A stretch of 64,000 nucleotides of DNA, taken from Deuterostichococcus epilithicus. Lineage: Eukaryota; Chlorophyta; Trebouxiophyceae; Prasiolales; Stichococcaceae. The stretch covers positions 2,728,009 through 2,792,008 of the forward strand of contig JAVTLE010000021.1 of the NCBI GenBank assembly GCA_033439295.1, written 5' to 3'. Positions 12,696-64,000 of the stretch are shown one piece after another. The notes beneath the pieces were generated by a model. That model saw only the letters and a program-made list of their open reading frames with translations, was not told where the DNA came from and ran no database searches. The stretch's first letter is position 1. Each line of letters begins with the position of its first letter. A program made the position numbers and the translations under genes.

Positions 12696-15600
12696 TCAGA
12701 GACGCAGGCTGAGGGTTGCCGCTTGCCGCACGTCTGCAGCAACGGACCCCTCCCCGAACAGCTCGCCCTCAAGCCTCGCCGCCAACGGCGCCAGTTGCAG
12801 GAAATACTTGCGCAGGAAAGAGCGCAGGCTGTACAGCGCAAAGGCGCGCCACGCTGCATCGGCCGACAGGCCACCCTCGCTGCTGCCATTGGCCGCCCCT
12901 GCCTCCGCCTCTGCTGCCTCCAGAGGCGTTGCTGCCAGCAGCTCTTTGAACGCCCCCAGCGTCTGCAGCAGAAGCGCCTGCACGCATCCGCAGAAATGGA
13001 CCGTGATTGTGTTCAGCAGGGGCAGTGGTTGCGCCTTGCTGCCGCAAGCTGGGTGAACAAGCAGGTGAATGGGCAGCCGGACGGATCACTGGCTGATTTG
13101 GAGGGCATCCACAGCAGGGACCACGTCTACTGCCCAATCCTTCAGTGCCCAGCGCTCCAGCTTGCAGGGGCAGCAGCAGCGCCACAGCAGAGGCGGCGCG
13201 GCAGAGGCGACGGATGTGGCACCTCCTGCTCGGCTACTGCGGCGTCGAGCGCCGCCTGCGGCTGCGCGACGGCGGCCGCCACCTCCTCGTCCGTCAGCTC
13301 CGGGTTCATCTCCCGCAGCTCCACGCTGCCCATCGCCACATCGTCGCGCGCGTCCTGTGCGTCACGACAACATGCGCTCCGAGTCGAGTGGAGGCACGGC
13401 AGGTAGATCATGCAAACATTCCTCGCCTGGCATGCCCTGTAGGACCTCAAACGGCGCCCGGCCGCGGCCCGCGCAGGCCGCTGGCCAAGCATGCTGTCGC
13501 AGATTAGCGGACATCTGCCCCTGTGCCGGCAGCCCGCCACAGCCGCGCGCTTCGTGCAAGGCCCACCACCTGAGAACCATCAGACTGCAATGAACTAGAG
13601 CGGTTGCGTGCCTGCGTGCGGGCGAGCGTCTTGTTGACGGCGGCGTACAGCGCCTCCCACGCCAGCCCCGCGCCCAGCTCGTCGTCGAAACGCTTGCGCG
13701 ACAGCTCGCCAAACGCCCAGGCCACGATGGAGGCGCCGGTCACCAGGCGCAGCGCCATGAGGCGGTCGATGGCCATGGCGGCCCGCTGCGGGGACGACGT
13801 CCACACAGCCGCGGCGGCGCTGATCATGGCCTGCTCGCCCTGCGGGGAGCGGCGCGCGACGGTTTGCGCATGTTGCGGCAACAGGAAGCTCCGGGTGCAT
13901 GCTGCACTGGTCCTCGACCGCAGTCTCATCGACATCGCTAGTTGCAATGAGACGACAGAGTGGAGATCCTCCCTGTCGGCAGGGCATCCTAGACCAGGCG
14001 AAGGATGGCGCTTCTGCACCTCCGCGACTGACCCTCGGGGTGCGCGACGACACCCTCAGCCATGGCTCGATCAGGTGGAGGGCCCCACCTCCGGGCCGGC
14101 CAGCTCCAGCAGCGCCTGCAGCAGCGCCTGGTACCGCTCCAGCGCCACCAGCGTGTGCGTGAAGCTCTTGCTTCCGGCAACCAGCAGCCCCCGCGCCGCA
14201 GCGGCGCACGCGGCGGCCGGGCCACCCAGCCGCTGCACCAGGTCGCCGCCCATGAACTCGGCGAGCACATCCTCCACCAGCATCTTGCGCTTGACCTGCG
14301 CGTTTTGCAGAATGCGGGTTCATGTAGTGTTCTTCAGATTCAGGGTTTAGGGCTGCACCTGGTCGCCGCCCACGGGTTCAGCCAGCAAGTTCTCTCCACC
14401 AGCATCTCGCGCTTCACTTGCACTCACAGTGCGCTGAGCTCGAGATTCAGGGATTAAAGCACCACACGACCGCCCGCGCAAACTTCTGCATGCGTGCGTA
14501 CTCCTCAGGTTTATGTTTGCTTTGATCCGTCAGTCTGTGCGCCACAAACCCACTCCACAGCCTCTGCACAGGAAAGCCCCACACTTTACGTGGAAGTTCT
14601 GCTTGCTTGCTTTCGCATTCTCTGGCGCACCATCTGCAACAGGTTGGCGGCGGTGGCGGCCTCCAGCGCGTCAGCATCGTCAACCCCTGCTGCCGCAGCG
14701 CCGGGCGCCGGCAGCTGCTGCGGCGCAGGCGGCGGGGGCATGAGCGTATGGAAGGCCTCCGGCACTGCCGCTTGGATGCGGTCGTAGTAGGACAGCCGCA
14801 CCAGCCGTGCCATGACGGCCGCCACGAAGTGCCTGCGCATTTGCATGCATTGACACTGTTGCCAGATCCGGCAGCTGCTCCGGCCGCGCCAACAGCAACG
14901 CCAAGGAGACGAGCCCGCATGGCAGCCCGGGCCTGTGCTGCCATATGCCGACACTCCAAGCTCTCAGCAGTCTTGTCAAGCTGCTGCCAACGCCTAAAGC
15001 ACTCTGTCAGTGCACACACTGCTCTGCAGTGGTCCGAAACGTGCATGCCGGCAGGATGCACATGGCCGTGCACCGCCCAATGGTTAGAGACCGCCTTCAC
15101 GACTGCCGCAGAACCAAGGCAGGAGGGGTCAGAGCCGCCGGCGGCGCACCGCTGCGCATCGTGCGGCGGCGCGGTGAGCACGTGACCCCACTTGGCCCAG
15201 GGCCACACGTACTCGAAGTTGGACAGGTGGTACGCCAGCCACTCCGCCAGCCGCTCCCGGACCTCCGGGTCCGCATTCTTCAGCCTGCGGCACATTGAAC
15301 CATGATGCTCGTGTCCAGCTTGGCTGCAGGTCAGCTGTCGACAGTAGAAGACTGCCCAGTTGGAGACCAGCCGCTACGCCGGCTGCTCTCGCGCCTCTGG
15401 GACTACGTTCCTCAGCCTGCGGCGGCGTACAGGGTGCTGACACTAGGGCTCGGGCAGCTTGAATGCTATGCAGCCGGACTGCTCCAAAGTGACACGCACA
15501 GAGGGCTGCGCCGGCTGCTCCGGTTGCTCGCGGTGCGCAAGCATGGGCAGCGCGACAAGCCCTTTCCTACACTTGTTGGATGGAAAACAAAGAAGGTCGA

Positions 15601-18600
15601 GCACAATTGATCTCCCACCGGGCGAAGCACTCGCGGACGCAGGCGGACATTGATCTCGGGAAAGTGGGCAGCAGCTTGCACAGGTCCACCATGAGGGCGG
15701 CGTAGGCGACGGGCTTGTGCGCCGGCGCCGGCACGCGCAGCAGCTGCGAGAAAAGCGCCTCCGCCAGCAGCGACTCGTACTTGTACGGGATCGGCAGCCC
15801 TGCAGCATTTCGCAAGGACTCACCAAGCCTGCGATTACATGTGAACAACAGAACAGAATCTTACGAGCTTCCCAGCTAGCCTGCAGCAAGCAGACTGCAA
15901 TCGTGCAAGATCGCAGACCTGAGGCGCAATTGTGGGCAGTAGAACTGGCAGCCCGGCGACCGAGTTCTAGGCGTCATCCTCTCTTGTCCGTTTGATATAG
16001 ACAGTGTTCTGAGCTTTTTAAGCAGCAGCTTGCGGTGGCTGGCAGCAGCTGCAGGGATGCCAGCAGCCTGTGCACAGCTCTAACTTGGCGCTGCAGCATC
16101 ACAGCGGCGGCGTACGCCAGCAAGCCGTCATGGCACTATGGCGCACGGCGCTGGCACTGTCACTCAATCCGGCAGCCTGCAGCTGTTCGCTGTGGGGGAG
16201 CAGCACCGGACGCACAGCCGGCCTCAAATGGAGTACCATCCTTTCAAAGTCAATTCGCAGCTGTCAAGTTGCAGCGTGAAAGGAGGAAACAGGAAAAAGG
16301 GCGGTCGTACCTGATGCCAGGCGCACGGCTGACTCCACGCGGTCGCCGTCAAAGTACAGCATCGAGTCCAGGATGTAGTCTTGTGCTATGAGGCGGTCCA
16401 GCGGCGGTCGGCCGCCGCCCGTGGCGTCCGCCGACAGCAGCGCGATGCTGCCGCGCGGTGGAAAGGCCGCTGTGACGGCCGCTGCGGCCTGCGTAGCCAT
16501 ATTGTCAGCTGTCAAAAATCAGTTTCAGGTAGTCAGCAGAGGCAGGGATGACGCGCACTTAGACAGGATGCAACCAGCCAGACCGGCCGAGCCAAGGAAG
16601 GGAGCTACAACCAAGCAAATGAGGAGAAGCGCAGAGCAAGGAAAGGACACCTCGGCAGAAGGCGCATTGGGTGGGATGCCGAGCGGGTTGCGCGGCACCG
16701 CCAGCAGCGGCAGCTTTGCCGGCTCGCCCGACGCCAGCACTGCCTCGTACTCCTGCAGCAGTGCAGTTGCATGTCACATTGATATCGGGATTTGCAGCCG
16801 TTCCAGCCGCCACGTCATGACAGCACCATCCAGGAATCTCTCCTGTCACAGGAGCGGCTGACATGGTTTGCGAGGCATGATGTTGCTTGATAGCTCGTGA
16901 ATAGCAAATTGCAGGTACGAAACGCCAGAGCGGCGACGTGGGGTGCACCTGCAGCTCCCGGCGCGGGACGGTCTCCAGCTGCCACTCGCCCGACTCCCGC
17001 CAGGCGCACACCGCGTCCCAGGCCTGCCCCAGGAAGCTGGCGCCGCCGCTGTCGCTCCTGCATTGGCAAGCAGCTGCTGAAGAACTCGATGAGAACTCGC
17101 AATCTCCCAGGAGGCTGGAGCGATGCTGGTGGCTGGGCGGCCACACGTGCAGAGTGCGCCAGAGAGGTGCCACCGTCTGCGGCGCCTGAGCCCCGGGCGG
17201 GAGAGACCACCTGACACATCATCCAACCTTGCACCAAGGATTGCCGCTGTCTCTTGCACACTCGCTCTCGCGCATCAATCATGGTACGGTTGCCGAGCGA
17301 GCCAACACGCGCACTGTGCGGCGGCGTCCTCGGGCCCGTTGGCGGCGAAGAAGGGCGCCAGGCCTGGCTGCGCCGCACGCGGCCGCGCCGCCATGTACGC
17401 CCCCGCCGCCTCCCACAGACGGTCCAGGTCGCCCGCCGCCGCGCCGCCCATGAGCTGCTCGCCGCCAAAGGGCAGTGCCGCCAGCGCCGCATACACCAGG
17501 CTGTCCGTGTATGGCTGCCAAGCGCGGCCTTCGTCGTCCCCGCCCCTCACCGCACCTGCAGGCTCATTCCCTATTGTAAGTGTGCTGCCGGAAGCAAGAT
17601 GTGATCACACCTCCATGTAACAATGCGCTGCACGTCGCACAGGCGCCATGGCCGGCTTCGACCGGCTTCGGCGTCCCAGCTCTTGCACCGGCGCCGCATC
17701 GCGCGCACGCGCGAAACGTGCACCACTCGTTGTGTCGACCATGTCGCTGTCGTCGACCCACCTTCCTGCGCAATGTCCAGCGCCGCACGCACCACCCCCT
17801 CCAGCGCGGCTATGACCGCGCTCGGGTGCAGCACGCCGGGCACCACCAGCGCCGCCAGCAAGCGCAGCAGCAGGCGCGCGCGCGTGCGGTCGCAGCCCGC
17901 CAGCGCCGCCTCGAACCCCGCCGCCGCCTGCTGCACGAGGGCGCCCACGAAGTCGCCGTCGTCCGCGTTCAGCAGCCCTGTGCGACAAGCACGAGCTGCA
18001 TCAATGACATGCCTTGTTCCCTGCGCAATCAGACGTCAGTCTTTCGTTGCGCATTCAACACCGCCACGAAGTTGCCGTCGTCTGCGTTCAGCAGCCCGTT
18101 CCGGGAGCACCAGCCGCATCAGAAAGCCGCTTCCTCTGTACCTTTTAAAAGCTGCTGCGCAAAGAAAGGCCAAGCTTCGACTTGCCCTCGGAGCGGTCAA
18201 TCGGTGCACATCGGTGCTGGCGGGGCCACTGTCCGAAAGCAAGCGCAGCATGTGCAGCTCCGAGTATGGCAAGGAGGATCGAGGTGCAGCCCGAACCAGC
18301 AGCATGGAAAACGAGGCACTGTACAAGGAGGCTGCCAGCGGCTGTCCAGCGCTTGCGCAGTTCAGTCTCCGAACTCACCAATGAGCAGAGCGTAGGTAGG
18401 CACTTTGCAGCCGAGCTCCACGACAGAGTCCAGCAGGAACTGGGTCACAGGCGCCGGCTTGGCATGCATCAGCCGCCGCATGTTCTGCGACATCTCCTCC
18501 ACCTGCTGCTCCGCCGGTCGCTCGTCTGCCTGGCCCCGCTACAGGCAGGGATCGGGGGAGGCATATTGGGCTTGCGGCACGAGCGGCATCGGGGCGCAGC

Positions 18601-18857
18601 ATTTGACAGGACAACATGACGGCCAGATTGGTTCACTTGACAAGACATCAGAGAATTACGACTGTATCCTGGCCTACCTGTTTGCGGTCGCCGAGGTAGA
18701 ACAGGTCGTAGCACAGGGAGCGCAGCCCATCATCCTCCTGCTCCTCCCTCTTCCGCTTGTTGTCATTGCGGAAGCCACCGCCGCCGCCGCCAGCAGCACC
18801 TTGGTCCGAGCTCCGGCGCGGGGCGCTGCTGTAGTGCGACACGCGGCGATCGCCCAT
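12696..18857 (-). CDS. NCBP1: Nuclear cap-binding protein subunit 1 (CBP80)
   Basis: A large gene whose conserved blocks appear in family order. The N-terminus is 18678-18857 (MGDRRVSHYSSAPRRSSDQG). The first MIF4G domain continues in 18379-18529, 17762-17977, 17315-17555 and the exon starting at 17057. Later blocks are DRLIAQDYILDSMLYFDGDR near 16400, LLAEALFSQLLRVPAPAHKP near 15740 and LAYHLSNFEYVWPWAKWGHV near 15220. RLSYYDRIQAAVPEAF lies near 14780, KSFTHTLVALERYQALLQAL near 14130 and AAMAIDRLMALRLVTGASIV near 13740. The C-terminus is in 13223 upward, then 12696-12977. It binds capped RNA with CBP20 in the nucleus. The AVAIDRMM-like and C-terminal blocks resemble plant CBP80 most. Several weakly conserved linker exons are not resolved. 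Three introns carry broken copies of the next exon. Confidence 0.9.
14227..14460 (-). repeat. Tandem copy of an NCBP1 exon start inside the preceding intron
   Basis: The exon beginning MLVEDVLAEFMGGDLVQ (ending near 14302) has a diverged copy at about 14341-14430, offset 120 bases at GGTCGCCGCC. Flanking intron sequence is copied too: AGATTCAGGG occurs at 14336 and 14443. The copy lies upstream in transcription and no longer reads like the protein. Confidence 0.75.
15190..15530 (-). repeat. Degenerate copies of the HLSNF exon start in an NCBP1 intron
   Basis: The real exon opens at about 15287 with LKNADPEVRERLAEW after a CCGCAG acceptor. A copy with the same acceptor and a related opening (LRNVVPEARE) lies about 132 bases upstream in transcription, near 15330-15420, and soon meets a stop. 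A third, weaker trace of the same C/G-rich segment lies near 15485-15530. Confidence 0.65.
17945..18115 (-). repeat. Tandem copy of NCBP1 exon 3 start
   Basis: The segment coding LLNADDGDFVGAL (17940-17977) recurs at about 18055-18100, offset 119 bases at GCGTTCAGCAGCCC. The downstream CAGCCGCATCA/GAGCTGCATCA tract is also shared. The copy sits in the intron before the real exon. Confidence 0.75.
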
Positions 18858-19461: not shown

Positions 19462-22400
19462 ATGGACGATGAGTTCGCCTTGGAGCTGGAGGACGTGGAC
19501 GATGCTCCTCCGGCCATCCCACGGCCGGCACTGCTGCGGCGGCAGCAGCAGCAGCAGCAACCACAGCGGCTACAAGCAGCAGCTTCGTCAAGTGCTCCAC
19601 TGAACCAGCACCAGCAGCTCCCTTGTGCGGCCGCTGCGCCTCCACAAGTGGGCCTGCCACAGCAGCGGGCGTCAGCACAGCATGACTACACACAGTCTGC
19701 TGGAGTCTTCGCTGATGACTCGGACTCGGAGGAGATGCTTCCCGGCGGACACCCAGATGCCAGCGTGGCGCCACTGCTGCCTCAATCGCAGCATGGCAGC
19801 CAGGCAGCAGCACCGCAGCAGGCAGTGGCGCCGCCGGTGGTCACGCAGCAGCAGCAGCAGCATATAGAGCGACCTCTCGACATGGACCTGGACGAGGATG
19901 AACATGCGACGCCAGCGGCCCGCCAGCAGGCCTCACAGCCGCTGCCGCACAATGCGTCAAAGCCGCCGCATGCATTGGCAGCACACAGGACTTTGCAGCA
20001 GGCGCAGCCCCAGCGGCGACCCGTGCCGCCGCAGAGCCTGCCGCAGGCTTCGCAGCAGCCGAGCCCGCAGCTGCCGCCAGACTGGTTGCAGCCAGGAACA
20101 CCAATGCTAGCGTCGCCGGCAGCGTTGGCCAACGGCGGGTTCGCAGCGCGGCGCGACAGCCAGCCGCCGGCAAAACAGCAGAGGACGCAGGAGCCTCACC
20201 CTCAGCAGCCCATGCGTGGCGACAGCCAGCCGCCGGCAAAACAGCAGAGGACGCAAGAGCCTTACCCTCAGCAGCCCATGACGGCGCAGCTGCGGCAGCT
20301 GCCGCCATGCAGCTCAGCGCGCTCCCAGCCTGCAGGTGCTGCACCTGTCGGGATCCATTCACAGCAGCGGCAGCAGCAGCAGCAGGGGCGGTTCCTGTCC
20401 TACCAGTCACAGCAAGCGCTGCTGGCAGCGCCAGCGCAGGCGCTGCAGTCGCAGCGAGCAGATCTGTCTCAGCCGGCAGCCCCATCGCATCTGGTGCCAT
20501 CTGTTTCAGCAGGCAGCCAGTACCCTGCAGCACAGCAGAGGTCGCAGCTGCCACGTGCCAGCCAAGGAGAGGGCATGCATGCCGATGCGGCGGACGCCAC
20601 TCCTGCAACCCAGCCAGATGCCATTGAGCCGGTGAGCTTGGGCATACATTCCCGGCCAGTTGGAGAGTTGTAGCAGGCAAGTCCACCTGGACACGTCCTT
20701 GTGGCAGCACTGTTGCTCAGGAGGGGCAGTTGCAGCACAGGCTTGCAGGCTTCCAACGTGTCTCTGGACCTTCACAGGTGGCTGCAATACCCGGTCCGGC
20801 AGGCGTGCTGCAGCGGCAGATGGCGGCGGGCGCTGTGCCGAACACCATGGCAGACCTCTTGGGCCTCACCCAGGCAAGCCACTGGCTACCGAAAGAACCT
20901 TTAAGAAGCTGCTTCCGAACCTGCGCTGTCAACCACCTGAGATGGGTTGCGATGGCTACACTTCAGTGCCTGAGGCGGGTCTGCCGCCGTTTTGCAGCTC
21001 ATCAAAGCTTGTGCTCATTACTGCGCAGGCGGCGGCCAGAGCGCGCCATGCGATGGACCCGAGGCAGCCGGCGGACCCGGACTTTCTGGCAGAGGCATGG
21101 CGCACGGCGCTCGACGCTCTGGACCTGACACACTTCGACGGTGCGGCTGCTCGTCAGGCAGTGCATGGGGGATGACTGTCCAAGCAAGTTCATCGGGATG
21201 CATCAAGCCACTGCTTGCTGCTTCATCGTCGTGGTTTCGCAACGACTCATCCTTCGCAGAAGCATGTTGAGCTGGCAGTGCACTGAAGCGCGCCGGGATG
21301 TTTGCGCGCAGAGGGCTCACCGACGCTGCGCCACACCGTGCGCCGGGTGCTCTCACATGGCGAGCCCTGCATGGTCCCGAGGGTGCGACCCCGCCGCGCC
21401 AGAGCTCCTTCAGCATCCCCCTCGCCGCAGCTACTTCAGTATCCCCTCGCCGCAGCGTCCTGCACGCGGACGTCACGTGTTTCGTGGCTGTATAAAACCC
21501 GCTGGCCGGTGTGGGACAACTCCTGACTTTTCCACACCAGCTTTTACTTTGTCTGCCTGGCGCCCGCAGATGCTGGTCCTGGTGGTGACTGTAGGCGCCG
21601 CACCCACCGGCGAGGGCTACATGACGGTCAAGGTTCGTTCCGCTGCCCCAGCTTGGGCACCCTGCTCTGCCCTCCGCAGCTCCACTGGGCATCGACGGAA
21701 GGATCTTCTGAATGCGACACATTGCTAATATGTCAGATGCGGCTGACAAAAAGGCACGCTCGTCCCTCGATGACCTCATTCTCCAGGACCAGTGGCCGCG
21801 CAGGACCCGACTGCCACCATGCGCGGCTGCCTGAGCAGGGAGGTGATGGCAGGCGAAGACTGCCCCAGGGCCGGTGCCGTGCTGATGCTGCAGCAGGTGT
21901 GCACGCCATCCGCACGAGGGGGTTGCGGACCTCTCCTGACAGCCAGCACGTGTCCTTGCTTTTGGCCTTGCTTTTGGGCAAAGCCCAAAGTTGCCGCCGG
22001 AGAATCAGTGCGGCATGGGCCCCTGCACCAGCAGCCTGTGTGACGCACGACCTGGGACGCACAGAAAGGACACAGGGCCACTGTGCGTCAAGCGCACGGT
22101 TTGTCTATGTTGTCGAAGTCAGTCCTCCCAGCTGCCGCGAGGATCCTTCTCGCCGAGTGCAGGTGCCCGTTCTGCCGCTCGGCTTTGGCGGCCCCTGCGT
22201 GCTGTGCGTCACGCCTCCCAACATCGTGCAGGTGCTCGTCTTTCTGCTCCCGCATCCCTGTCCCCATCTCATGACGCTCACCGCAAGTAGTAAATCGTTT
22301 GTCAGCCTGCAAGGCTCGAACACGCTGCCTGTCACGGTTTCCACAGATGCTGCCGCCGGACCCAGGCGGGCTGCCAAGCCAGGCCGGCGCAGCAACGGTG

Positions 22401-23129
22401 CAGCCCCTGCAGCAGCTACTGGCGTCGTCCGCGCTGGCGGCTCAGCAGCAGCGACAGCCCGGCGGACAGCCCAGCAGCGGTGGCGGCAGCCAGCGGACTG
22501 GGGCGCCGCTGCAAATAGAGTGCCCGGTGCCAAGCCAGCCAGCAGGCTCGTTACGCCAGCAGCGGCAGTCCCGGCCGCAGCAGGCAGCACGGGACGCCGC
22601 CGGGGCGCAGCAGCGGCAGCGGCAGGAGCAGCGACAGCGGGCGGCTGAGGAATACGCTCGGGCAGTGTCGCAGGCGCAGCAGCCGCCAGCGAGCTCAGGA
22701 GGCGGGCACCACTCAGGGCGCCCAGTCTCTGGCAGCCAGCGACCGGTGGACAGCCAGCCTCAGGCGCAGAATGCGTTTCCCAGCGCCGCGCCACAAAGCG
22801 GGTCCAACAGTCAGGCGGCGGCTATGCCGCTTCAGCGTGCAAGCGACCAACCGCAGTTGGCGGTCGCGACGCAGAGCGCCGCACATCGACAGGCCCTGCA
22901 CGCCGTGCCGCCGGCTTCCGCTGCCGACGCTGGCGGCCTGCAGAATCCTGTGCCGAGGCCCGTCTTTACTGATGCGACGAATGCAGGCGCTGCCGCGAGA
23001 TGCACGCCGCCCGCGCCGGTCATGCAACCTTGCTGCGGGCAGGGCGGGCGGCACCTCACCGTGCAAAGCACCGCGGGCGGTAGGACGGAGGACGAGGACA
23101 TGCTGCTAGACGGACTCGACGATTTCTAG
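19462..23129 (+). CDS. HROB: Homologous recombination OB-fold protein (HROB/MCM8IP-like)
   Basis: Eight exons keep frame: 19462-20631, 20778-20873, 21029-21140, 21312-21382, 21570-21632, 21804-21896, 22163-22231 and 22347-23129, giving 818 residues. The acidic start MDDEFALELEDVDD, the motif AAIPGPAGVLQRQM and WRTALDALDL precede an OB-fold. That fold is built from MLVLVVTVGAAPTGEGYMTV, DPTATMRGCLSREVM, GAVLMLQQ and CVTPPNIVQ, the pattern of the DUF4539 domain of HROB. HROB helps the MCM8-MCM9 helicase in recombination repair in animals. Long Gln/Pro/Ala-rich arms flank the domain, and the protein ends with acidic DEDMLLDGLDDF. Intron 2 appears to use a GC donor (CAG then GCAAGC). A 22-residue in-frame repeat lies at 20155-20286. 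Confidence 0.8.
20155..20286 (+). repeat. In-frame 66-base tandem repeat in HROB
   Basis: Two nearly identical 66-base units each encode DSQPPAKQQRTQEP plus a short tail. The length is a multiple of three, so the frame is kept. Confidence 0.9.
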
Positions 23130-23519
23130 GGATTGCGGGATTAATTTGTGAGCAATCTTCCTGGAATTCAAAGATATGTTCAATTTCCCCTCGCTTAGTC
23201 ATGCAATCTGCAACTCGGATTGTTCGCGCTCTCAGCTCGAGGCACTCTCGAGCTAAAACTTCTTGCTCACCCGATGATGTGATATATGAGACAGATGCCA
23301 GCACACTTGCCGAGCTGTGAAGCACTCCGCCTCGTTGGCCACTTGCAATCAATTTTGTGACAACTGCCGATGCAGCTTTCGGCACCCAGGGGAGGCCTAG
23401 GCTCATGTCCAAAGACTAACAACGTCATCCATAGGTAAGGGAAAATGGTACAACACTGCTGCCCCAATTTTGAAGATAAAATGCATTCTGGCACTGTGGG
23501 GTTCAACTACTCCTGCGCC
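23130..23519. promoter_or_regulatory. Gap between HROB and fibrillin gene
   Basis: A 390-base gap between tandem plus-strand genes. It is less GC-rich than its surroundings and carries the fibrillin 5' region. No coding exon is supported. Confidence 0.4.
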
Positions 23520-29263: not shown

Positions 29264-29641
29264 GCTGCAGTTTGATGTCTGCGGAGGATGGGGTGCTGAT
29301 GCGGCTGGCCCGCACAGGGGGATGGGCAGCCCTTACAGCAAGGGCGGGGCAAGCCGATCCGTCTGAGATGCAAGCATCCTTGGACTAGGGCTGCACAGCC
29401 TCCGGTCAGAGCTGCTCTGTTTGTTCTCCAAATTGCCCGGCGGCAACTTGAAGTATGACACGGCCACTCCTACTTCGTGGGTCAGCAAAGTTCAGCCTGC
29501 AGATCAAACACGGAACCCTTGTGAGACAGCCAGAATGGTTGGGTATCTGTGTCGTCCGGTGGGCAACGTGCCAAAATGTCGCTGACGTCGGGGAGTTGCT
29601 TGGCCTGCCACACGCCGACCATGCCAGGATATCGAACTGGA
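29264..29641. promoter_or_regulatory. Upstream region of the SGNH gene
   Basis: It contains the SGNH gene promoter and the 3' flank of a possible unknown gene. A minus-strand open segment at about 29482-29655 (RYPGMVGVWQAKQLPDVSDI, ending in FDLQAELC) also looks coding and could be an alternative last exon of that gene. Confidence 0.35.
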
Positions 29642-33300: not shown

Positions 33301-35506
33301 GCTGCGGCGAGGCACCTCGGTGCTGCGCTCCAATGCGGCCTCTGCAGCGGCCAGCTTGGTGGCCAGCTCAGCCGCCTGCGCCTGCACCGCCGCCACCGCC
33401 GCCGCCCTGTCGTCCAGGTCCTGCGGAGGACGGCAGCAGGGTTTCGGGGCCTCTGGCGAGTGTGCTCTGGCGGCAGTTCAAGAACTTCAGCTGCTGAGGC
33501 CCGCAATGATCCTGCTGCAAATTTCGAGTCCTCAAGCGCCCACCAGGAGCAGACACCAGGGCGCTAGCAGGCTCGTGCACAGAATCGCACAGCGGCTGTT
33601 GGAAGTGACCTTACCCGTCGCAGCGCCGCCGTGCGCTGCTCCTGCGCCTCCGCCTCGCCGGCCAGCCGTGCGCGCTCGCCGACCGACTGCATGAGCATGG
33701 TCCGCAGCTCCTCCACCGCCGCGTCCACCGCGCGCCGCTCGGCGCGCAGGCCAGCAGCTTCGGCGCGCGCCTCCGCCGCGTCTGCATCCCGCTCCTGCAC
33801 CTGCACATGGGAGCAAGTTCTGATGAGGGAAGCTAGAAAATATTGATTTAGAAAGTGCCCCTGGAGGGCGCCGCCGCAGCGTCCGCAACCCGTTTCTGAC
33901 GGAGGGTGGGTGACGGGCAGGTCTCACACCCTGACGCACAAGTGACTGAGGACCAGCTGTGCAGGCCTCTGCGTCCAACTCAAACCCTTCAGCAAGAAGG
34001 CTCAAGCACGCAGTTGACGGTTGCTGGACATGGTGTTCCCGGTTTGGATGGAGACAGAGAAACATGTCGAACGGCCGCGCCTGGGTCGTGAGACCCTGCA
34101 GGCTGGCCTCAATGTCTGCCTTCTCGCTGGCTGCCACCTTTGCCAGCTGGCGCTCGACCACCACCTGCGCAGGGGAAGGTCTTGCACTCGTATTTCGCTC
34201 TGGGCACCTCCCTGCATTGGTCCAAGGAGCTGCGAGCTATGTCCTAGGTCCATCCAGCCCATGCGACTTGACATGTGCGGCGTGTGGACGAACCATGTGG
34301 ATTAACTGGCACCTGTTGCTGCAGCAGCGCGGTCTCTCTGCGCATCGACTGCAGCTGAGCTGTCAGGGCCGCAACCCCATTGTCGGCATCTGTCAACGGC
34401 TGCTGCTGATGCTGTTGCGGTTCTGCCACTTCGTTGGCGCCAGCGCGTGCGGCTGTGGCGGCGCTGGCATCCGTTTGACGATGTGCGGGCTGGGCTGCGG
34501 CATCAGGCTGCGGGCGCTGCAAGGCACCGCCGCCGGCTGCAGTGTCCCGCAGGCCATCGAGCGGGGCCTGGTTGAAATGCAGCCGCCTCTGTGCTGATGA
34601 GTAGGGCCTCTCGGGTGGCTCTGCCTCGTGGCTGCGTGGCGTGCCGACCAGCGGGCTCCCGCCCAGCGGGCTCCTGCCTGTTGGGGCAGATGCATCATTG
34701 TGGGTCGACCAGTTGCAAGGTCAAGAGATGCTGACTACGTCACTGGGAAGTGGCGTTATCTGCGACAGGAAGAGCCTTTGCGGTCCATGTGGCCAAGTCT
34801 GGCACAGCTTTGGCGGCGGTATTCCAGCCCGTACTTGACACAGCATCAAGCGGCCGTACCTTCGTCCGTCAGCGATACAGACTCCATGCTGCCCTGGCGG
34901 CTGAGCTGCAGGAGCCTCGGCACAGTGATGTGCGCGCTGCGGGGCCTGTCATTGCCGCTGGCGGGCGAGCCAGACGGCTGGGCGCTCGCCGCCAGCATGG
35001 ATGCATAGCCCGGCGCACTGCCGGCAAAAGCCGGCCCTCCGCCAGAGGAGCCTGCCGCCAGCCCCGCAGTGCCGTGCAACTCCGAGTTGCCGTTGTGCAA
35101 TGTCGTCTTCCTGCCGCGCCTGCGCCAGCCAGGGCGACGGCAGACTTGAAGGCATACGGACCCAGTCACACCGTTGCTGTGCGCATCACTTGCATTTGCC
35201 GGGCGCAGCTGCTCACGCGGCGGCGCACCCGTCCACAAAGGACGCAGCGACGCCCACGAGCGCTGCAGCGTTCGGCTGCGCCTTCGTCGCGGTCTCTGCG
35301 GCGCGCTTGGCGGACTGCGCAGCAAGCTTGCGGCCCTGCGACAGCCAGCGCCGATGATCAGCTCGAAGGATGGCGAGCCTGTACGGCAGCATGTAGTCGC
35401 TGAAGCCACGCGGTCTTGCCTGGGTGACGCCCTGCGAAACTTCGGTGAGAGCGCCGGTGCCAAACTCCTTGACGTCGTCGACCGCCGCGCGCAGCTGGTG
35501 CCACAT
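30334..35506 (-). CDS. Golgin with C-terminal membrane anchor (golgin-84/CASP-like)
   Basis: The gene starts MWHQLRAAVDDVKEFGTGAL (35420-35506), passes a Ser/Gly-rich linker (RSAHITVPRLLQLSRQGSME near 34900), then hundreds of residues of Ala/Glu/Arg heptad coiled coil spread over exons from about 34500 to 31000. Examples are VQERDADAAEARAEAAGLRA near 33780 and LQEADARLTEAQLEADAAGA near 32080. The C-terminus has VKGDEDIETGLLRS, then SVRTWLVIAYLSVLHFALMA, a single membrane span with the Tyr and Leu-His spacing seen in CASP and golgin-84. These proteins tether vesicles at the Golgi. Whether this one is golgin-84 or CASP is not decided. Exon 1 seems to use a GC donor (CAG then GCAAGA). One exon has an N. 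Confidence 0.68.
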
Positions 35507-50420: not shown

Positions 50421-50493
50421 GCCGGGTTAGCTCAGTTGGCAGAGCGTCAGACTCTTAATCTGGTGGTCGCGGGTTCGAGCCCCGCATCCGGCT
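50421..50493 (+). tRNA. tRNA-Lys(CUU)
   Basis: A full cloverleaf of 73 bases without intron. The 7-bp acceptor stem pairs GCCGGGT with ATCCGGC (one G-U), the D stem pairs GCTC/GAGC, the anticodon loop is CTCTTAA (anticodon CTT) and the T arm is GCGGG-TTCGAGC-CCCGC. The discriminator base is T. A T run follows at 50502. Confidence 0.96.
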
Positions 50494-50703
50494 TGGTTTG
50501 CTTTTGCCGCTGTTCGTTGTCTTGGGCTCATCCCACCCCCGCCTGCTGGCGGCGGCGGCTGCTTTCGAGCCCCGCATCCGGCTTGGTTTGCTTTTGCCGC
50601 TGTTCGTTGTTTGGGGCTCATCCCACCCCCGCCTGCTGGCGGCGGGCCTGCCGCTGGGGGCCGCCAAGCCAGCGGCGGCAGCTTTCGAGCCCCGCATCCG
50701 GCT
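50473..50703 (+). repeat. Three tandem copies of the tRNA-Lys 3' end and flank
   Basis: TTCGAGCCCCGCATCCGGCT occurs at 50474 (inside the tRNA), 50564 and 50684, offsets 90 and 120. The first two are followed by the same flank (TTGGTTTGCTTTTGCCGCTG), including the T-run terminator and a GGCTCATCCCACCCCCGCC tract. The copies lack the 5' half and the full B box. Confidence 0.92.
50502..50505 (+). terminator. Pol III T-run after tRNA-Lys
   Basis: TTTT nine bases after the tRNA end. It is repeated with the duplicated flank at about 50592. Confidence 0.6.
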
Positions 50704-51639
50704 CAGGCCTCATGTTGCTGCTGCCAGCCCGCCGCTGCGGCTCTGCGAGCGCATCAGCAGCTCGGCAGCAGCAGCTTGTTTGCGCGGCATCCGGCTGCAG
50801 CCTCCGGCAGCGCCGACCACGCAGCGGGCATTCGCCTTGGGTCGTCTGTCGGCCCTGCCGCGGCTGCGGAGCCCCGCACCGCAATTGCGGCTTGGCTCCT
50901 TCGAACTGCATTGACTGCTCGTTGCTCCAGCAGACCTGCACTCTCTGCTCACAAACCTCGGCGGGACATGAATGCATGGCGGCCGATCGAGGCCAGCAAA
51001 AAGGATATCAGGGTTCACACGTGTCCCGACAGGTGATGTGTGGATCGAGGATGTTCAAGTCTGGATGATGTGACGGCGGCAAGCGGTTACTAGATGGCGG
51101 CATGCAATGCATATCAGAGGCATCCCTCGCCCGATCGAGACGGTGCAGGGAGAGGCGTCGGCTGTTTTCTTCGCAGCTCTTCCCCTGCATGGTGCAAGGG
51201 CGACACAACTCAGCCATCTGCGAGCAGGCAACCTCACGGGCATCACGGAGGCAGCGAGTTTGCGCCTGTTGCCACCAGCGCACACCTCCTGGAAGGAATG
51301 TGAGTCCCCACGAGTTCTTCCACCCTGCACAGCGTGTGCAGTCCTCACAACAAGCGCAAGGACGTAAACTGCTCGATGATCTTCGAGATCTCCAAGGTTT
51401 TGGAGGTCATCCGTGATGACTTACGCAAGCTTCCCGGGCCACCTCTGAAGTTTTCCACAGACTTGTTTCAGCTCCCATGCTGCAGCGCCGGTGCTGCAGC
51501 GTACGACACGCAGACGCATGGCATGCCCCAAGCTTCACCGGCAGGTGCATTCGTTCAAATCGTGAAGAACGTACCGGGACCAAGGCTCCGTGAGCCCCGA
51601 GCGACGCTCAAGCCGTGCCCCGATCGCATCCTCGTCGCA
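50704..51639. other. Gap between tRNA repeats and membrane-protein gene
   Basis: It should contain the promoter and 5' UTR of the next gene. Several open frames exist on both strands, but none resembles a protein family or has good splice partners. Confidence 0.4.
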
Positions 51640-54858: not shown

Positions 54859-57800
54859 TCAGATCCACCCGCTCTTCTGAGCGATCTTGTATGCGCTCAT
54901 CAGCCAGCCGATAACAAGGCCGCTGACCACGCCCTTGGTGATCTTCTGAGTCTGCGAGAACAGTTTGCCTGCGCCGAAGAGAGGGGCGCAGTTGTCATGC
55001 CCGGAGCTGCTTCGACCTGACAGCATCGTGCTCGGTGTGCTGGCACAGAGCTGACCGCAGAGAGGGACGACAGATGGCAACAGTGGGACGTGCTGTGTGT
55101 GTCAGCACACATTGGACGATGCAGCCGAGGCCGCCTGCGCACGTGCTGACCATGTGAAGACATGAAATTTCACAGACGCACTGAGGCCCTGGTCGCCGAG
55201 CGCGGTGATGAGGTTCTCGATGTCGTGGCCCGCTGTGGTGATTGCGCGGCAGAAAAACCCGGCGGCGATGAACAGCAGGCTGGCTCGCAGGCTCTGGTCC
55301 AGGAGGTGGAATCCGAAGTTCCAGGCGTCCCACCCCAGCTCCAGCCAGCCGCTGCTGTGCACCAGCGTCGCCGCGGCTGCGGGTAACAGAACTTGAGAGC
55401 TTAGCGACTGGCTTGGGAGGACAGGGTTCACGAGTCACAGCCGAGGACGCAGGCGTCCACCCCAGCTCCAGCCAGCCGCTGCTGTGATCCCGCGTCGCCA
55501 CAGCCGCGGGTGGCGGCCGAGAAAGCGTACCTCAGGGCCTTCGATGGAGCATCATGCTGCATCACCGACATGACCCTACATGTCCCCACCCCACTTCCAG
55601 ACAGCCGCTGCTGTGCCAGAGTAGCATTGCCGCAGCTGCATGTGGCATGAAAGTGGAGGCCTGCTCGGAAACATGTCTCTCGGCACCTCCTTGTGCAGCC
55701 TGATGACCAAACGACAACAGCATGCGGGCGCGGCCTTGCGGGGCTGTGTCAACTAAACGGTAGCCAGCATGCGACGGGTGGCAGATTTCCGTTCATTTCG
55801 GGCGTGCGGACGGTGGCGCACCCAGCGCGATGGTGGAGAAGGCCTGCAGGCTGAGCGCGATGCCGGCGACGCGCATGCCGTTCATCACCAGCTCCAGGAG
55901 CTGCTCCTCCTGCGGCACAGCGACGAGAGGACAGTAAAACTTGTGAGACCGAGGCACGACTCTTGGGCGTGCTGACCAACAACGGCTGGCAGGAGCAAGG
56001 CGCCGTCATTGCATGTCCAGTGGCAAGTGCCGGCTTGCGGCTGCAGCAGCTGCTTCTTCTGCAAAGGCGTGGCGTACAACGGCCCAGCTGAGGCTGCTCA
56101 CTCAGTGCGCGATCACCCGACGCACTCCAGCAGCGACGGCTGCCGAGCTGATCTGTTCCCGAGTGTGGCGGCGCGACAGCACAGCACCGGCAGTCGTGCC
56201 CCGACCTGCGGCTTGAACTCGTACTCGTGCGCCGGCGCCGCGGCCTCCTCTTCCTTGTCGACCTCTGGCGTGCGGCCTTCCGCCCGCGCCCGCTTCACGC
56301 CTTCTGGCTCCTGCTCCGCCCCGTCCTCGTCCTGGGCCCCCGGAAACTGTGCGGCGGCGGCCATACCGACAGGGTGTGAGTTGCATGGCAGAAGCTTTGC
56401 GAACCCGCTCGGACTTGGCCAGCGAGCCGCTGCACATCCATGGCACCGCTGGATCTTGGCCGGTGTCGCCTTCTCCAACAGCGCTGCGCCGCTGTCAGTG
56501 CCTGTGCGGCTGTCGATTTCAAGTTTGAGAGCCAGCTCTGCGGCTTGTGTGTGGAGGGAGTTTCGCAGGGTCGCAACCATCCTGCACACACATTTCTGGA
56601 CACCCATTGAGCGGCAGCAGCAGGCTGCTCCTCGCTGGTGACACACAGCGGCATGGTCTGCCACCGGCCAGGGACAGGACACTGCGAACGCTCCGGGCCG
56701 GCGCGCACCTTCTGCTGCTGGCTGTCCATGGTGAGCGGCAGCACCAGGCCGCCCACGACCGCGAGCGCGGCGCGGTCCGTCCACGGCATGCGCCGCCGCA
56801 GCTGCTTCGCCTGCCCGCCGCGCATGGCCAGCATGACGGCCAGCGCGCGGCCGCTGCCGGGCGTATAGCGGCTGAGGATGCGGGCCAGGGCGATGGCGCG
56901 CACCGCAGCGGCCAGCGCCGCCGCGCCAGTCACCCACGTCACCAGCGGCGGCCACCTGCGGGTCCAAGGTGCCATGCGCTGGGTGCTGTGTACCATGTAC
57001 GTGTGGTACAAACAGCTCTGGCGCTCAGGCACACCATCGCTGGGACCACAGTGCGGGGGTGGTTGGATCAAGAGCCCTCGGAGCGCTGCCGGATGCAGAG
57101 CGGCCGCAGCGGCACGCGTCTGGCTGCGACCCTGGGAGCGGGTCCCACCTGCGGGCGGCCTGCAGCAGCTGGATGACGCCCATGGACATGGTGATCGTGG
57201 ATGCCTGCATGAACACGAAGCCCAGCTGCAGCAGCCCCTGCAGGCGCACAAACCCACAATTCTGAAGGGCAACCGTGTTGACAAGCAGGAAGGCTGCCTT
57301 GCATAGACTGCCAGTCGTGTGCAGCGCTGCAGCTCGAACCGGATATCATGTCGATGCAAGGAGCTCACGATGCACGGCTGGACCACCCTGAGGCATGCGC
57401 ACAAGCCGGGGCAGCAAACGTTGGGCGCTGCAGCATGTTACATCTGTTCTCGTGCTTGGTTTGCAGTCCTTGACGTGCAGACCTGGAAGACAAACTGCAG
57501 CTGGTGCTTGCCGCTGTTGAGGACGCGCTTGAAGGACTTTGCGGCCATGAACAGCAGCACGCTGGTCAGGCCGTAGTCCAGGATGACGGCGACGTTGTTG
57601 ACGTGCACGCCTCCCACGATGAGCACCGCGTCGCTGGCGTTGCCGCCATAGATCGCCTGGGGCACACGTTGCAGGCAATGACCTGCAGGTGTCGGTGTGT
57701 CGTGTTTTGCAGCACCACCACGAGCACCTCGTCGCCGGCATTCGCCGACGCGACTGGCCTGGGGCGAACACGCAGTCGACGTAGAGCTGCTCATGCCCCT

Positions 57801-59329
57801 CGTGATGCTTTTGTCCGGGGGTGCCACCGGCAGAAAGCTGTTCGAGGTTTCTGGCTGCACACTACATTATTAAATACCACAACTTACAGGAGGGAACTGC
57901 CGCTGGGCGCGTGCCCCCCAACAGGTTATCCCCCCGCGGCAGGTATGCCCCCGCTAGCCCTCATACTGCCCCCCGGGACTCACCTTGCCAGTGGTAGTCA
58001 GGATCTCCAGCACGGCGACCGCGCCAGACGCCACCGCGCAGCCCCTGATGCCGCTGATGAGCTTCTCAATCACCTGCACAGCACCGCGCATCAGCTTCCA
58101 CCGGTTGGTCTGCATGCCAATGAACAGCACTGCACGGTTGAGCCCTTGAAAGCGGCGTTCTGCTGGCTTGCCAGATGCCTCGATAGTCGCAGTTCGGTGC
58201 CTTTGAGCAGGGGTGCCACCATCCGCAGGGCCTGCGGCCTGAGCTCCAACCTTGCGCTGTGACCCGTCAAAGTCGTACATGCATGGACGGTGGTGGAGCA
58301 CTGCTCCGAGGCCCTTCGAGGGCCGACACCCAGGTCGCGCCCTCACCTTGAGCTGCGACTCGTCAAAGTCGTACTCCCCAAACTCGCCCTTGACGGCCTT
58401 CTCCAGGCGGCCGCCGCCGCCGCGCTGCGGCTCCTCCGCATGCTCGTCCAGGGAATCCGCTATGCGCTCCACAGGGGCTGCCACTGCGGCGCGCGCCTCC
58501 TCCTGCATCAGGTTTCAGAAAGAGAGACTCGTGTCGCTCCCTCCCCAGGATATCAAGTCCAGCAAAGTCTTCTGTGCGCCCCACCGGCGCCGCCACCGCA
58601 GCAGGCGGCTCCTCCTGCAGCAGACTCGAGGCTGACCCACAGCTTCCTGGTCTGTCACGTCCACTGAACTTGCTATCTGCTCCTCCGGCGCCGTCACCGG
58701 CCGCGCCCGACTCCTCCTGTGGCAGGGATCACGGTCTGATGTGCGACAGCTCTCCTCTTGTGCTCTGATCTGCCGAGTCTGCCGTCCGCTTCTACAGCCC
58801 CCCCGGCGGGGGGCGGCCAGCCTGCGCCCACGATCCGTGGCGGACAGGGCCGCCCAACACACCAGGCGCCACACCCCCCACTCCATGGCCTCACACGAGT
58901 GATCCTGCTGAGGGGACTGGGAGCCGCTTCCGTCGGCACTTGCTACTGCTCCTCACCTGCCGCACAAAATGTGTGATTCGTTGTCCGCTTGCCACAGCTG
59001 CTCTCGCGCACTTTGTTGTGTGTTGAAGGAAGTGTGCGAGTTGCGAATCGCATGGTCAGAGGAGGATGATAGCGCACCTGGGCGTGCTCCATGCTGTCCT
59101 GCACCTCCTGCACCTTGCTGCCCGCCTGCTTGAACACCTCGCCCGGTTCTTTTGTCTCGTCGCCCGCGTCCCTGACCGTCTCCCCCGCCTCCTTCACCTT
59201 GTCCCCCGCCTCCATCGCCCGCCCACCGGCTCGCTTCGCATACTCGGCCACGCCGGCGCCTTCAACGTCGTCGCGGGCGGCTGCGGCGCATCGTCGCCTG
59301 CGCGGCGGGTGCGGATTCGAGGATGTCAT
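54859..59329 (-). CDS. Membrane protein with LEA-like N-terminus, function unknown
   Basis: Exon 1 (59078-59329) starts MTSSNPHPPRRRR, which could begin a plastid transit peptide, and continues with a Lys/Glu/Ala 11-mer region (AGDKVKEAGETVRDAGDETK) like LEA proteins. Exons 58347-58502, 57984-58073, 57483-57656, about 57167-57252, about 56705-56958, 56209 to about 56350, 55816-55916, 55170-55389 and 54859-54968 follow. They carry about seven membrane segments: LISGIRGCAVASGAVAVLEI, ILDYGLTSVLLFMAA, LVTWVTGAAALAAAV, VVGGLVLPLTM, MRVAGIALSLQAFSTIALG, ASLLFIAAGFFCRAI and VVSGLVIGWLMSAYK. An acidic linker (DEDGAEQEPEGVKRARAEGR) sits in the middle. I do not recognise the family. Several introns carry copies of neighbouring exon ends. 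Confidence 0.65.
55325..55645 (-). repeat. Three tandem copies of an exon start in the membrane-protein gene
   Basis: The real exon opens around 55380 with TLVHSSGWLELGWDAWNFG. Copies of the same stretch (HSSGWLELGW, then HSSGCLEVGW) lie about 127 and 257 bases upstream in transcription, near 55440-55515 and 55570-55640. CAGCCGCTGCTGTG is kept in all three and identity falls with distance. Confidence 0.85.
58264..58372 (-). repeat. Copy of an exon end with its donor side
   Basis: The exon end coding YDFDESQLK (58347-58373) recurs as YDFDGSQRK at about 58250-58277, offset 96 bases at CGTCAAAGTCGTAC. This copy lies downstream in transcription, as expected for a duplication spanning a donor site. 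Confidence 0.75.
58460..58730 (-). repeat. Three tandem copies of an acceptor plus EEARAAVAAP exon start
   Basis: The exon starting at 58502 (EEARAAVAAPVERIAD) is preceded in the intron by EEPPAAVAAPVGRTED (start near 58615) and EESGAAGDGAGGADSK (start near 58716). Each follows a CAG acceptor, with offsets of about 113 and 102 bases. Confidence 0.8.
58811..58880 (-). repeat. Dispersed repeat, copy B
   Basis: Second copy of the element at 48990-49062. It lies in the first intron of the membrane-protein gene. Confidence 0.6.
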
Positions 59330-62186: not shown

Positions 62187-64000
62187 TCATTCTGGCACAC
62201 GGCGGTATGCAACCACTGTCCGAGCCGGCGCCAGCACCAGCATTGAGTGCGGCCGGTTGTTGAAGTTCGTCTCCGGCTTACCTGCAAAAGCAGAATGCAG
62301 ATCGTGAGTCTTAACAATGGTTTTTTACTTGGAAGACCTTGCGCAACACACACACGAGGTGTGACGCGCTTGAAGGGCACAGCATTCCTGAAGTGCGGCG
62401 TCCCCAGTGTCGTGCAGGCTGGCTGCAAGCTTCAGCGCACGGCGATGGTCCATCACGCTGTGGCTGCTCGCGCATGGCGGAGCGGTCAGAGCCGCACCCG
62501 GCTCCCCCTCTGGCTGCGTGAAGTGGTCGGTGTCGTGGCCGACGCGCCCCTGGCCACCGAATCGCCGTTCGTCAGAGTCTAGCACCACCCTGTACTTGCC
62601 GCCCTCCCCTGCGCCCACCTGTAGTTGTGCACGGCCTGGACTCATAGATCAACTTCGGAAGCGACTGCTCATGCAGCGTGCAGCAGCGGCTCGTCAGCGT
62701 CCAGCAGCACCCTGTACTCACCGCCCTCCCCCGCACCTGTGGTCCAGTGGAGGGCTGCTAACTACGATCACTAGACTGGTCAAGCTGGCAGGCAGCTGCC
62801 GCAGGCTCCAGCAGTAGGCCATGCATCTCCCGCCTCTCACCGCCCAACCAAACCACGAGGCTGCCCCGCCGCCTGGGGCTCGGAAAACCCTGTTCAAGCT
62901 GCCAGGCACATTTAGGCGCATTGCCCCACGATCCCAGACAATTCGCCATGTCTGCCGGTGCGCCTCAGATCCTGTGAGGCGGCAGAGCGGCCGGTACCTT
63001 CAGGCCCTCGTAGCTCTCGGTGGGCGAGAAGTTGAACACCCACACAAGCGGCCCCCGCTCCGCCACGATCACCTGCAGAACAGCAGTCGACCATCGTCCA
63101 CGAGGTGCCGTAGCAGGAGGCGCCTGCCGCCACAGCCAATCTCGCGGCCACAACCGCCCTGCAGACAGCACCAGTGACGCCCTGTATATCATTCGTCACA
63201 ACCTAACCCTGCCAGCACTCTGCTTGCTGTGCTCGCTGAACAAGCACACAGCAAGCTTTTCAAAGTTGAGAAACACCTCATCTGGGCATCCCGGAATAAC
63301 CCCTGGGTGGGCGCCCACCTGCCGCTCATCATCGGCGTGGGCAATCTGGTGCGAGGCACTCAGGAACTGGAACTCATCGTCGGCCGCGTGCAGTGCGCTC
63401 TCGAATGCCAGCAGGTGCGCGTAGCGCAGGTGGCTCTGGTCGGCGAGGCCCCACTGCCGCCGCGCGTACGCGTGGCTCCAGCTGTTGCCCTCCCTGCGAC
63501 ACCGTGTGCCGGCACCAGCCTCAGCAGAATTCATCGGTTGGACGCACCTGAGCAAGCCTCATCAGCAGAGGAGCGCTGCCCAGACTGAGCCTTGCTTGGC
63601 CACCACCTGCAGGCGGCCTGTGCAGCGACCGTCGCTGTGCTGGTTTCGTGGGGACTGAACGGTGTTGGACGGCGGTGCCCGAATGCACCTGGGAAAGTCG
63701 ATCCACTCGGGGTGGCCAAACTCGTTGCCCATGAAGCCCAGCCAGGCGTCGCCTCCGATCGCCATGGTCACCTGCAGTGGAGACGCAGAGCGCCGTCCGA
63801 CCTCCAAGCAGATTGAGCACTTGCGTCGACCGTTGTGCCGCAGACATGATGTGGGCGGCTGGCGAGCGGCACGTGCCAGGCGGCAAACAGCCGCATGCAC
63901 GGCTCCAGGTGCACATCGCTCTGATGAGCCCTACAGGCAGCGGCGCACAGCTCTGCGCACATAGAATCTGTAGACTTGTGACGGAGTGCTGATGGAGTGA
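62187..64000 (-). CDS. SBE: 1,4-alpha-glucan (starch) branching enzyme, C-terminal part
   Basis: The gene enters from beyond the right edge; only its 3' exons are here: 63689-63771, 63319-63493, 62998-63072, 62498-62618 and 62187-62281. They read [85 protein letters not shown] and [20 protein letters not shown], ending RRVPE. This is the end of the GH13 barrel and the C-terminal beta domain of SBE/GBE. The enzyme makes alpha-1,6 branches in starch in the plastid. All listed junctions keep phase. The exon or exons to the right of 63771 could not be fixed. An intron copy of the 62498-62618 exon start lies upstream. Confidence 0.93.
62575..62750 (-). repeat. Tandem copy of a branching-enzyme exon start
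   Basis: The exon starting at 62618 ([17 protein letters not shown]) has a copy with acceptor at about 62740 reading [14 protein letters not shown] before a stop. The offset is 122 bases at TGTACT. Three bases are missing near its start. The copy sits in the preceding intron. Confidence 0.88.

What the first reader, a model, noticed from the sequence alone, without database searches (positions are those of the whole stretch)
14227..62750. Window-wide pattern: 90-130 base tandem duplications across exon or tRNA boundaries
Seven or more independent loci (three NCBP1 introns, three sites in the 54.9-59.3 kb gene, branching enzyme, tRNA-Lys) show the same thing: a segment crossing a functional boundary is copied in tandem with an offset close to 120 (119, 120, 132, 127/130, 113/102, 96, 122, 90/120). 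Copies at acceptors lie upstream and copies at donors or tRNA ends lie downstream, as simple tandem duplication predicts. Different decay levels imply repeated events over time. Duplications wholly inside exons would be removed unless in frame, so selection may explain why boundary copies survive. The near-constant length suggests one mechanism, for example replication slippage or repair with a size preference.
Basis: partly seen in the sequence, partly recalled or inferred. Interest (0 to 1): 0.8.

Follow-up and report, generated by a model that had tools for sequence, protein, structure and literature searches.

The report
Short tandem duplications lengthening algal introns
In this stretch of a probable green-alga chromosome, pieces of about 100 to 130 bases spanning the edge of an exon have been copied next to themselves several times, making introns longer in steps; it is a real and unusually size-restricted pattern, most likely a known kind of DNA-repair error filtered by splicing.

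Summary
Ungapped self-matches scoring 22 or more, low-complexity ones removed, occur at offsets 66-132 (9 segments) and nowhere else from 20 to 6000; 60 resampled windows gave none. Of 109 introns, 10 hold a copy of their own exon edge (8 acceptors, copy upstream; 2 donors, copy downstream; about 0.12 of each expected), at offsets 96-132. Affected introns are longer (median 357 versus 208) and ordinary once the copies are subtracted. A sharp upper limit near 130 bases, plus the need to carry at least 50 bases of intron and enough exon to be seen, reproduces the size range; flat or rice-like limits do not. Best reading: repair-type small tandem duplications, as in rice and human cells, tolerated where the spliced message is unchanged. 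A similar duplication made a new intron in potato; two of seven loci examined allow that anatomy. Unexplained: an acceptor excess, clustering in two genes, and intron-side halves more decayed than exon-side halves. The mechanism is inferred: no whole genome, algal relative or RNA data were available.

The parts
17945..18097 (-). NCBP1 intron 18378-17978: exon start (17945-17978) copied upstream at 18064-18097, offset 119; no AG left at the copy
15235..15423 (-). NCBP1 intron 15618-15285: exon start (15235-15291) copied upstream at 15367-15423, offset 132; the copy keeps a good acceptor, then an in-frame stop
14232..14421 (-). NCBP1 intron 14629-14296: exon start copied upstream at 14352-14421, offset 120-122, copy frameshifted
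55322..55646 (-). 54.9-59.3 kb gene, intron 55821-55377: three stacked copies of the acceptor region (55322-55384, 55450-55511, 55586-55646), offsets 127-128 and 129
57614..57772 (-). 54.9-59.3 kb gene, intron 57983-57657: exon start copied upstream at 57715-57772, offset 101-102 (not in the finding)
58446..58719 (-). 54.9-59.3 kb gene, intron 59077-58503: three stacked acceptor copies, offsets 111-112 and 102; the middle copy allows an in-frame 30-nt pseudo-exon (58585-58614)
58249..58374 (-). 54.9-59.3 kb gene, intron 58346-58074: exon end copied downstream at 58249-58278, offset 96 (donor type)
56604..56757 (-). 54.9-59.3 kb gene, intron 56708-56332 (predicted): exon end copied downstream, offset 123 (donor type, weaker, score 18.3)
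62569..62755 (-). Branching-enzyme intron 62997-62619: exon start copied upstream at 62691-62755, offset 122; the copy holds an AG, 15 in-frame bases and a GTGAGT
33762..33898 (-). Predicted gene 25558-35506, intron 34137-33801: exon start copied upstream at 33863-33898, offset 101 (weaker, score 20)
50421..50796 (+). tRNA-Lys(CTT) 50421-50493; its 3' end plus 62 nt of flank duplicated (50474-50555 to 50564-50645, offset 90, 98%); a 32-nt copy at 50672-50703 and a decayed one at 50765-50796
20148..20280 (+). 66-base tandem duplication, open in the frame that starts at 19462 (403 codons, HROB-like gene model); the gene finder places it in an intron, so coding status is inferred

Best explanation
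Small tandem duplications of up to about 130 bases arise repeatedly in this genome, most likely when two nearby nicks on opposite strands, or a break with long overhangs, are filled in and rejoined. Inside exons they would survive only in frame. Across a splice site they are tolerated because the outer copy is spliced away with the intron: at acceptors the exon-adjacent copy, which carries its own branch-point region and AG, is used; at donors the first GT is used. The intron grows by one unit each time and the stranded exon fragment decays. Shown here: the copies, their polarity, offsets, size restriction and the association with longer introns. Inferred: the break-repair mechanism, the role of selection, and which acceptor is used.
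For: Chance excluded. 10 of 109 introns hold a copy of their own exon edge on the predicted side. Affected introns are longer (MWU p=5e-5) and match the others after subtraction (p=0.23). A cap at 132 with at least 50-55 nt of intron and 25-30 nt of exon gives P 0.13-0.54 for all ten offsets in 96-132; a flat size prior with those limits gives 3e-12 or less. The one candidate exon-internal case is 66 nt, in frame. In one search's alignments 4 of 7 acceptor copies (14295, 55376, 57656, 62618) have frameshifting gaps, and 15284 has a stop; 2 of 7 have no AG near the aligned boundary. Rice shows an upper limit near 125 bp (PMC7971508); human and mouse small tandem duplications arise by fill-in at overhangs (PMC8355091).
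Against: Intron-side halves are more decayed than a neutral model predicts from the exon-side halves (Fisher p 1e-4 to 8e-3 by parameters, 7 loci). Compared with other acceptors, only 2 of 8 intron halves score below P 0.05, and at 33800 and 62618 they do not exceed unrelated intron sequence. Acceptor events outnumber donor events 8 to 2: p 0.002-0.015 if acceptors must carry 50 nt of intron, 0.055 if both are equally likely. The cap was set from the data, and with looser limits (2-20 nt of intron) it fits poorly (1e-4 to 0.01); a rice-like soft limit gives 1e-6 to 6e-5. Junctions are too decayed to read microhomology.
Confidence: 0.6

Rival explanations
1. The stranded exon copies are functional: decoy acceptors, poison exons or new mini-exons that create new introns by activating a donor in the copy, as in the potato RdRp gene. 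This would explain why exon copies are better kept than the intron halves.
For: Exon-side conservation exceeds the neutral expectation. 4 of 7 upstream acceptors still score within the range of hand-set real ones, and 2 of 7 loci (58502, 62618) offer an in-frame pseudo-exon with a usable donor, giving new introns of 82 and 103 nt; a third candidate at 14295 has an acceptor just below the range. The gene finder called the first two as exons. Potato precedent PMC4974935.
Against: 2 of 7 copies have no AG near the aligned boundary; 4 of 7 are frameshifted and one more has a stop; rice branching enzyme has no extra residues at the site. No RNA data.
Confidence: 0.16
2. Spaced copying: a 35-65 base piece around the exon edge was copied and inserted about 60-85 bases upstream (templated insertion), so the offset is a distance and not a unit length.
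For: In the local alignments similarity runs only 0-26 bases into the intron at the seven acceptors. The third tRNA copy is a 32-base piece at offset 120 with abrupt ends.
Against: Intron halves score above unrelated intron sequence at P 0.032 or less in 6 of 8 loci, and the donor alignment runs 35 bases into the intron. Introns with copies are longer by about the full offset. The youngest cases, 66 and 90, are head-to-tail or nearly so (82 of 90).
Confidence: 0.13
3. Mutation is directed to acceptors (for example by co-transcriptional structures or nucleosome-linked nicks), which sets both place and size.
For: 8 of 10 at acceptors and 8 of 10 in two genes; narrow size range.
Against: Duplications also lie at a tRNA, at donors and in an open frame. 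Intron-only events are nearly invisible at this age. The hand-modelled genes were chosen because they held duplications.
Confidence: 0.08
4. Chance similarity in GC-rich or repetitive sequence, or assembly error.
For: The window is rich in CAG and GCC runs, and some hits are of this kind (31362, and six at far offsets).
Against: the copies differ at about 2% to 30% of positions, which an assembly artefact would not give.
Confidence: 0.03

Closest known systems
Tandem-duplication insertions ascribed to patch repair in rice (PMC7971508; passages and section 7 read)
   Same: Head-to-tail insertions with a size limit: their share of events declines beyond 125 bp, from 70% to 5% by 200 bp
   Different: Here the limit looks sharper (none over 132 among ten), the copies are old, and they are seen mainly at splice sites
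Intron gain by acceptor-spanning tandem duplication, potato RdRp gene (PMC4974935; passages and section 5 read)
   Same: The unit runs from the intron 3' part into the next exon, so acceptor and branch-point region are duplicated
   Different: In potato RNA-seq reads show a new intron; here most events seem only to lengthen an old intron
Pol alpha-primase/CST fill-in duplications at breaks with 3' overhangs in human and mouse cells (PMC8355091; abstract, introduction and passages read)
   Same: Small tandem duplications made by end joining after fill-in
   Different: The overhangs tested there were as small as 43 bp, and its introduction speaks of insertions under 100 bp; no factor was tested here
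Drosophila introns from tandem duplication of proto-splice sites (PMC2891723; passages read)
   Same: Tandem duplication alters exon-intron structure
   Different: There the new intron has the size of the duplication; here introns are 177-361 nt longer than the copies they hold

Membership tests
Small tandem duplications (patch-repair class) | Adjacent direct copies, unit length equal to offset | tested here: inconclusive
   Met at 20148 (66) and nearly at the tRNA (82 of 90); intron halves are related in 6 of 8 loci but strongly decayed
Small tandem duplications (patch-repair class) | Upper size limit near 125 bp | tested here: met
   No ungapped offset above 132 up to 6000 at score 22; gapped hits beyond are stacked copies or compositionally biased
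Small tandem duplications (patch-repair class) | Junction without slippage-type homology; repair-factor dependence | not testable with these tools
   Junctions decayed; needs young alleles or mutants
Intron gain by tandem duplication (potato type) | Duplication includes intron 3' part and exon 5' part | tested here: met
   Exon part at 8 acceptor loci; intron part above unrelated intron sequence at 6 of 8
Intron gain by tandem duplication (potato type) | Activated donor in the copy, in frame | tested here: inconclusive
   Sequence allows it at 2 of 7 loci examined
Intron gain by tandem duplication (potato type) | New intron shown by RNA and absent in relatives | not testable with these tools
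   No RNA data; no algal relative found
Introners (dispersed intron-making elements) | Related sequence inserted at many unlinked sites | tested here: not met
   Exon edges against 25 randomly drawn other introns each gave no match of 22 or more, while own introns gave 7
Mutually exclusive duplicated exons | Copy is a complete open exon with both splice sites | tested here: not met
   Copies are partial; 5 of 7 examined have no in-frame option within the score ranges of real sites

The most novel reading that the evidence does not exclude
In this algal lineage, acceptor-centred tandem duplications of at most about 130 bases are the main engine of intron growth: introns lengthen in steps of about 115 bases, and the duplicated acceptors act as a standing supply of decoy and new splice sites from which new introns and mini-exons are made.
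Probability: 0.18. Interest if true: 0.75.

Novelty: new variant of a known kind. Interest (0 to 1): 0.5.

Why it matters
If it holds genome-wide, it gives a directly countable mechanism for intron-length growth and a readable fossil record: each stranded exon fragment dates one event against a conserved copy beside it. It would also let the size limit of a repair process be measured from sequence alone, and would warn annotators, since a gene finder called two of the stranded copies as exons.

Tried and rejected
Rejected or unsupported: my recalled guess that the 54.9-59.3 kb gene is a RETICULATA/DUF3411 protein (no Pfam support); chance or low complexity for the strong loci; introners; simple de novo intron gain with offset equal to intron length (introns are 177-361 nt longer than the copies they hold). 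A constant-length model is less needed than a cap model. Led nowhere: Pfam on 20 raw ORFs gave one family hit; NCBP1 relatives in viral contigs, none; genome contigs with branching enzyme, bacterial records only by title among the 80 loci kept of 583; the first gapped scan overlapped itself in its 50-150 range, and a first alignment script self-matched and stopped; redone. Searches for a report of this pattern listed none that I recognised as describing splice-site tandem duplications with a size cap in an alga; apart from the four papers named above I saw only listings and the start of abstracts. The 2014 rice paper on patch-mediated repair is recalled and is not held.
Full report
What the window is. 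GC is 58-67% by 4-kb block. Genes are intron-rich, GC3 is 0.89 in hand-built exons, and the branching enzyme is closest to the plant chloroplast type (258 and 256 bits; the other branching enzymes listed 131-141). It is a nuclear eukaryotic sequence, probably of a green alga; that label is an inference. No whole genome of it is held.

Is the pattern real? An ungapped scan of offsets 20-6000, with low-complexity segments removed, gave 9 segments scoring 22 or more, one at 66 and eight at 90-132, and none beyond. Among segments dropped by the filter were offsets 36, 129 and 256; the last two are further copies at 55.3-55.6 kb. Sixty resamples that keep local trinucleotide make-up gave 0 at offsets 60-200, against 9 in the real sequence. 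A gapped scan gave 14 hits of 24 or more at near offsets and 8 in 19 other ranges. Looking at those 8, two are sums of stacked copies and six are GC-rich, compositionally biased stretches; a scan of contiguous ranges up to offset about 490 added only one more of the biased kind, at offset 430. One of the 14 near hits (31362) is biased too.

Gene models. Exons of NCBP1, the branching enzyme and an unidentified gene at 54.9-59.3 kb were set by hand. Branching-enzyme exons spliced at 4 junctions match rice BEI over 182 residues (E=5e-76) with one single-residue gap, not at a junction. NCBP1 pieces match human CBP80 (E=2e-24 and 2e-4), covering the junctions at 15284 and 17977. The 14295 junction lies outside the matched stretches. 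A home-made HMM gene finder then gave 9 genes and 125 introns; it recovers 13 of 18 hand-set introns exactly and 17 of 18 acceptors. It was first trained on these same genes. Pfam gives hits for 5 of 7 further predicted proteins or pieces.

Boundary test. For 109 introns of 60 bases or more, up to 60 bases of exon edge were compared with the adjoining intron and with 25 randomly drawn other introns. At score 18, 8 acceptor-side and 2 donor-side matches were seen, against 0.12 expected for each. Offsets were 101, 102, 112, 119, 122, 122, 127, 132 (acceptor) and 96, 123 (donor). 8 of the 10 are among the 18 hand-set introns, in genes picked because they hold the finding; 2 are among the other 91, one of them in the same 54.9-59.3 kb gene. 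So 10 of 109 is the fairer figure, and weaker gene models elsewhere may hide cases. Eight of ten lie in two genes, which may be real clustering.

Effect on introns. Introns with copies have median length 357; the 95 others under 1 kb (4 longer ones left out) have median 208 (p=5e-5). After subtracting the copies the median is 230 (p=0.23). A longer intron can also hold a copy more easily, so this supports growth but does not prove it. In the 18 hand-set introns, copies make up 1163 of 5337 bases, with the selection caveat above.

Size. The ten offsets have mean 115.6 and SD 12.2. Counting every placement that leaves the message intact, priors that are flat, 1/L or 1/L^2 give at most 5e-7 for all ten lying in 96-132. 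A hard cap at 132 with at least 50-55 bases of intron and 25-30 of exon gives 0.13-0.54. With 40 bases of intron it gives 0.04-0.08, and with 2-20 bases 1e-4 to 0.01. A rice-like soft limit gives 1e-6 to 6e-5 throughout. The cap was set from the data, so this shows sufficiency and is not an independent test. The lower edge would follow from splicing (the exon-adjacent acceptor must bring its branch-point region) and from detection. Lengths free of that rule are 66 and 90.

Decay. Of 7 upstream acceptor copies examined (33800 was not), two have no AG near the boundary (17977, 55376), one is just below the range of real sites (14295), and four still score like real sites (15284, 57656, 58502, 62618). 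Four of the 7 are frameshifted and 15284 meets a stop. Given how similar the exon halves are, neutral simulation expects more similarity in the intron halves than is seen, most clearly at 17977 (expected about 45-58, seen 12) and 55376 (about 28-32, seen 6); the combined p runs from 1e-4 to 8e-3 with assumptions. Intron halves exceed unrelated intron sequence at P 0.032 or less in 6 of 8 loci, but exceed other acceptors at P below 0.05 in only 2 of 8. Either some exon copies are kept or re-copied, or the copied pieces were shorter than the offset. I could not decide.

Place. The intron test looks only at exon edges, so all ten lie at boundaries by construction. In the gene-model-free scan the 14 near hits are 8 splice-site crossings, 2 pairs of stacked copies, 2 tRNA, 1 at 20153 and 1 biased. 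With equal visibility, boundary placements are 0.44 of allowed non-exonic placements for a 115-base unit, so a lack of intron-only events needs the detection argument: an intron-only copy of this age would score about 16 against a threshold of 24. Acceptors are 0.37 of allowed boundary placements if they must carry 50 bases of intron, so 8 of 10 is unexpected (0.007; 0.002-0.015 over unit lengths); with equal odds it is 0.055.

The 66-base case. It lies in the frame that starts at 19462 and stays open for 403 codons. The gene finder put an intron there, so it is coding by inference only.

Known biology. Tandem duplications are the commonest insertions in a rice comparison, with a limit beyond 125 bp, ascribed to patch repair (PMC7971508). 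Fill-in at 3' overhangs makes small tandem duplications in mammalian cells (PMC8355091). In potato a duplication running from intron into exon made a new intron, and a separate 83-bp duplication lay inside the first intron (PMC4974935). So the kind is known. The density, the sharp limit and the acceptor excess are what looks new here, on ten loci.

Verdict. Confirmed observation; an ordinary class of mutation with an unusually clear size limit and a visible association with longer introns; mechanism inferred.

Noticed in passing
50421-50796 (+): Copies 3 and 4 of the tRNA-Lys 3' end stop at the tRNA's last bases (CATCCGGCT), unlike copy 2, which runs 62 bases past; this looks like short templated copying or tRNA-end recurrence, not a 120-base unit.
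   Followed up: partly
19462-24915 (+): Predicted gene matches HROB (homologous recombination OB-fold protein, Pfam E=8e-12); the open frame at its start holds the 66-base in-frame duplication.
   Followed up: partly
58585-58614 and 62722-62736 (-): Duplicated acceptor copies with in-frame mini-exons that the gene finder calls as exons; candidates for new introns of 82 and 103 bases.
   Followed up: partly
311-6989 (-): NAD-dependent glycerol-3-phosphate dehydrogenase and a NIP7-like gene, merged by the gene finder.
   Followed up: no
7673-18857 (-): NCBP1 is followed on the same strand by an EMG1/NEP1 methyltransferase gene; the gene finder merged them.
   Followed up: no
30983-32643: Predicted coiled-coil coding region with weak, compositionally biased internal repeats at several offsets (68, 123, 355, 1049); not taken as duplications of the kind described.
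   Followed up: partly
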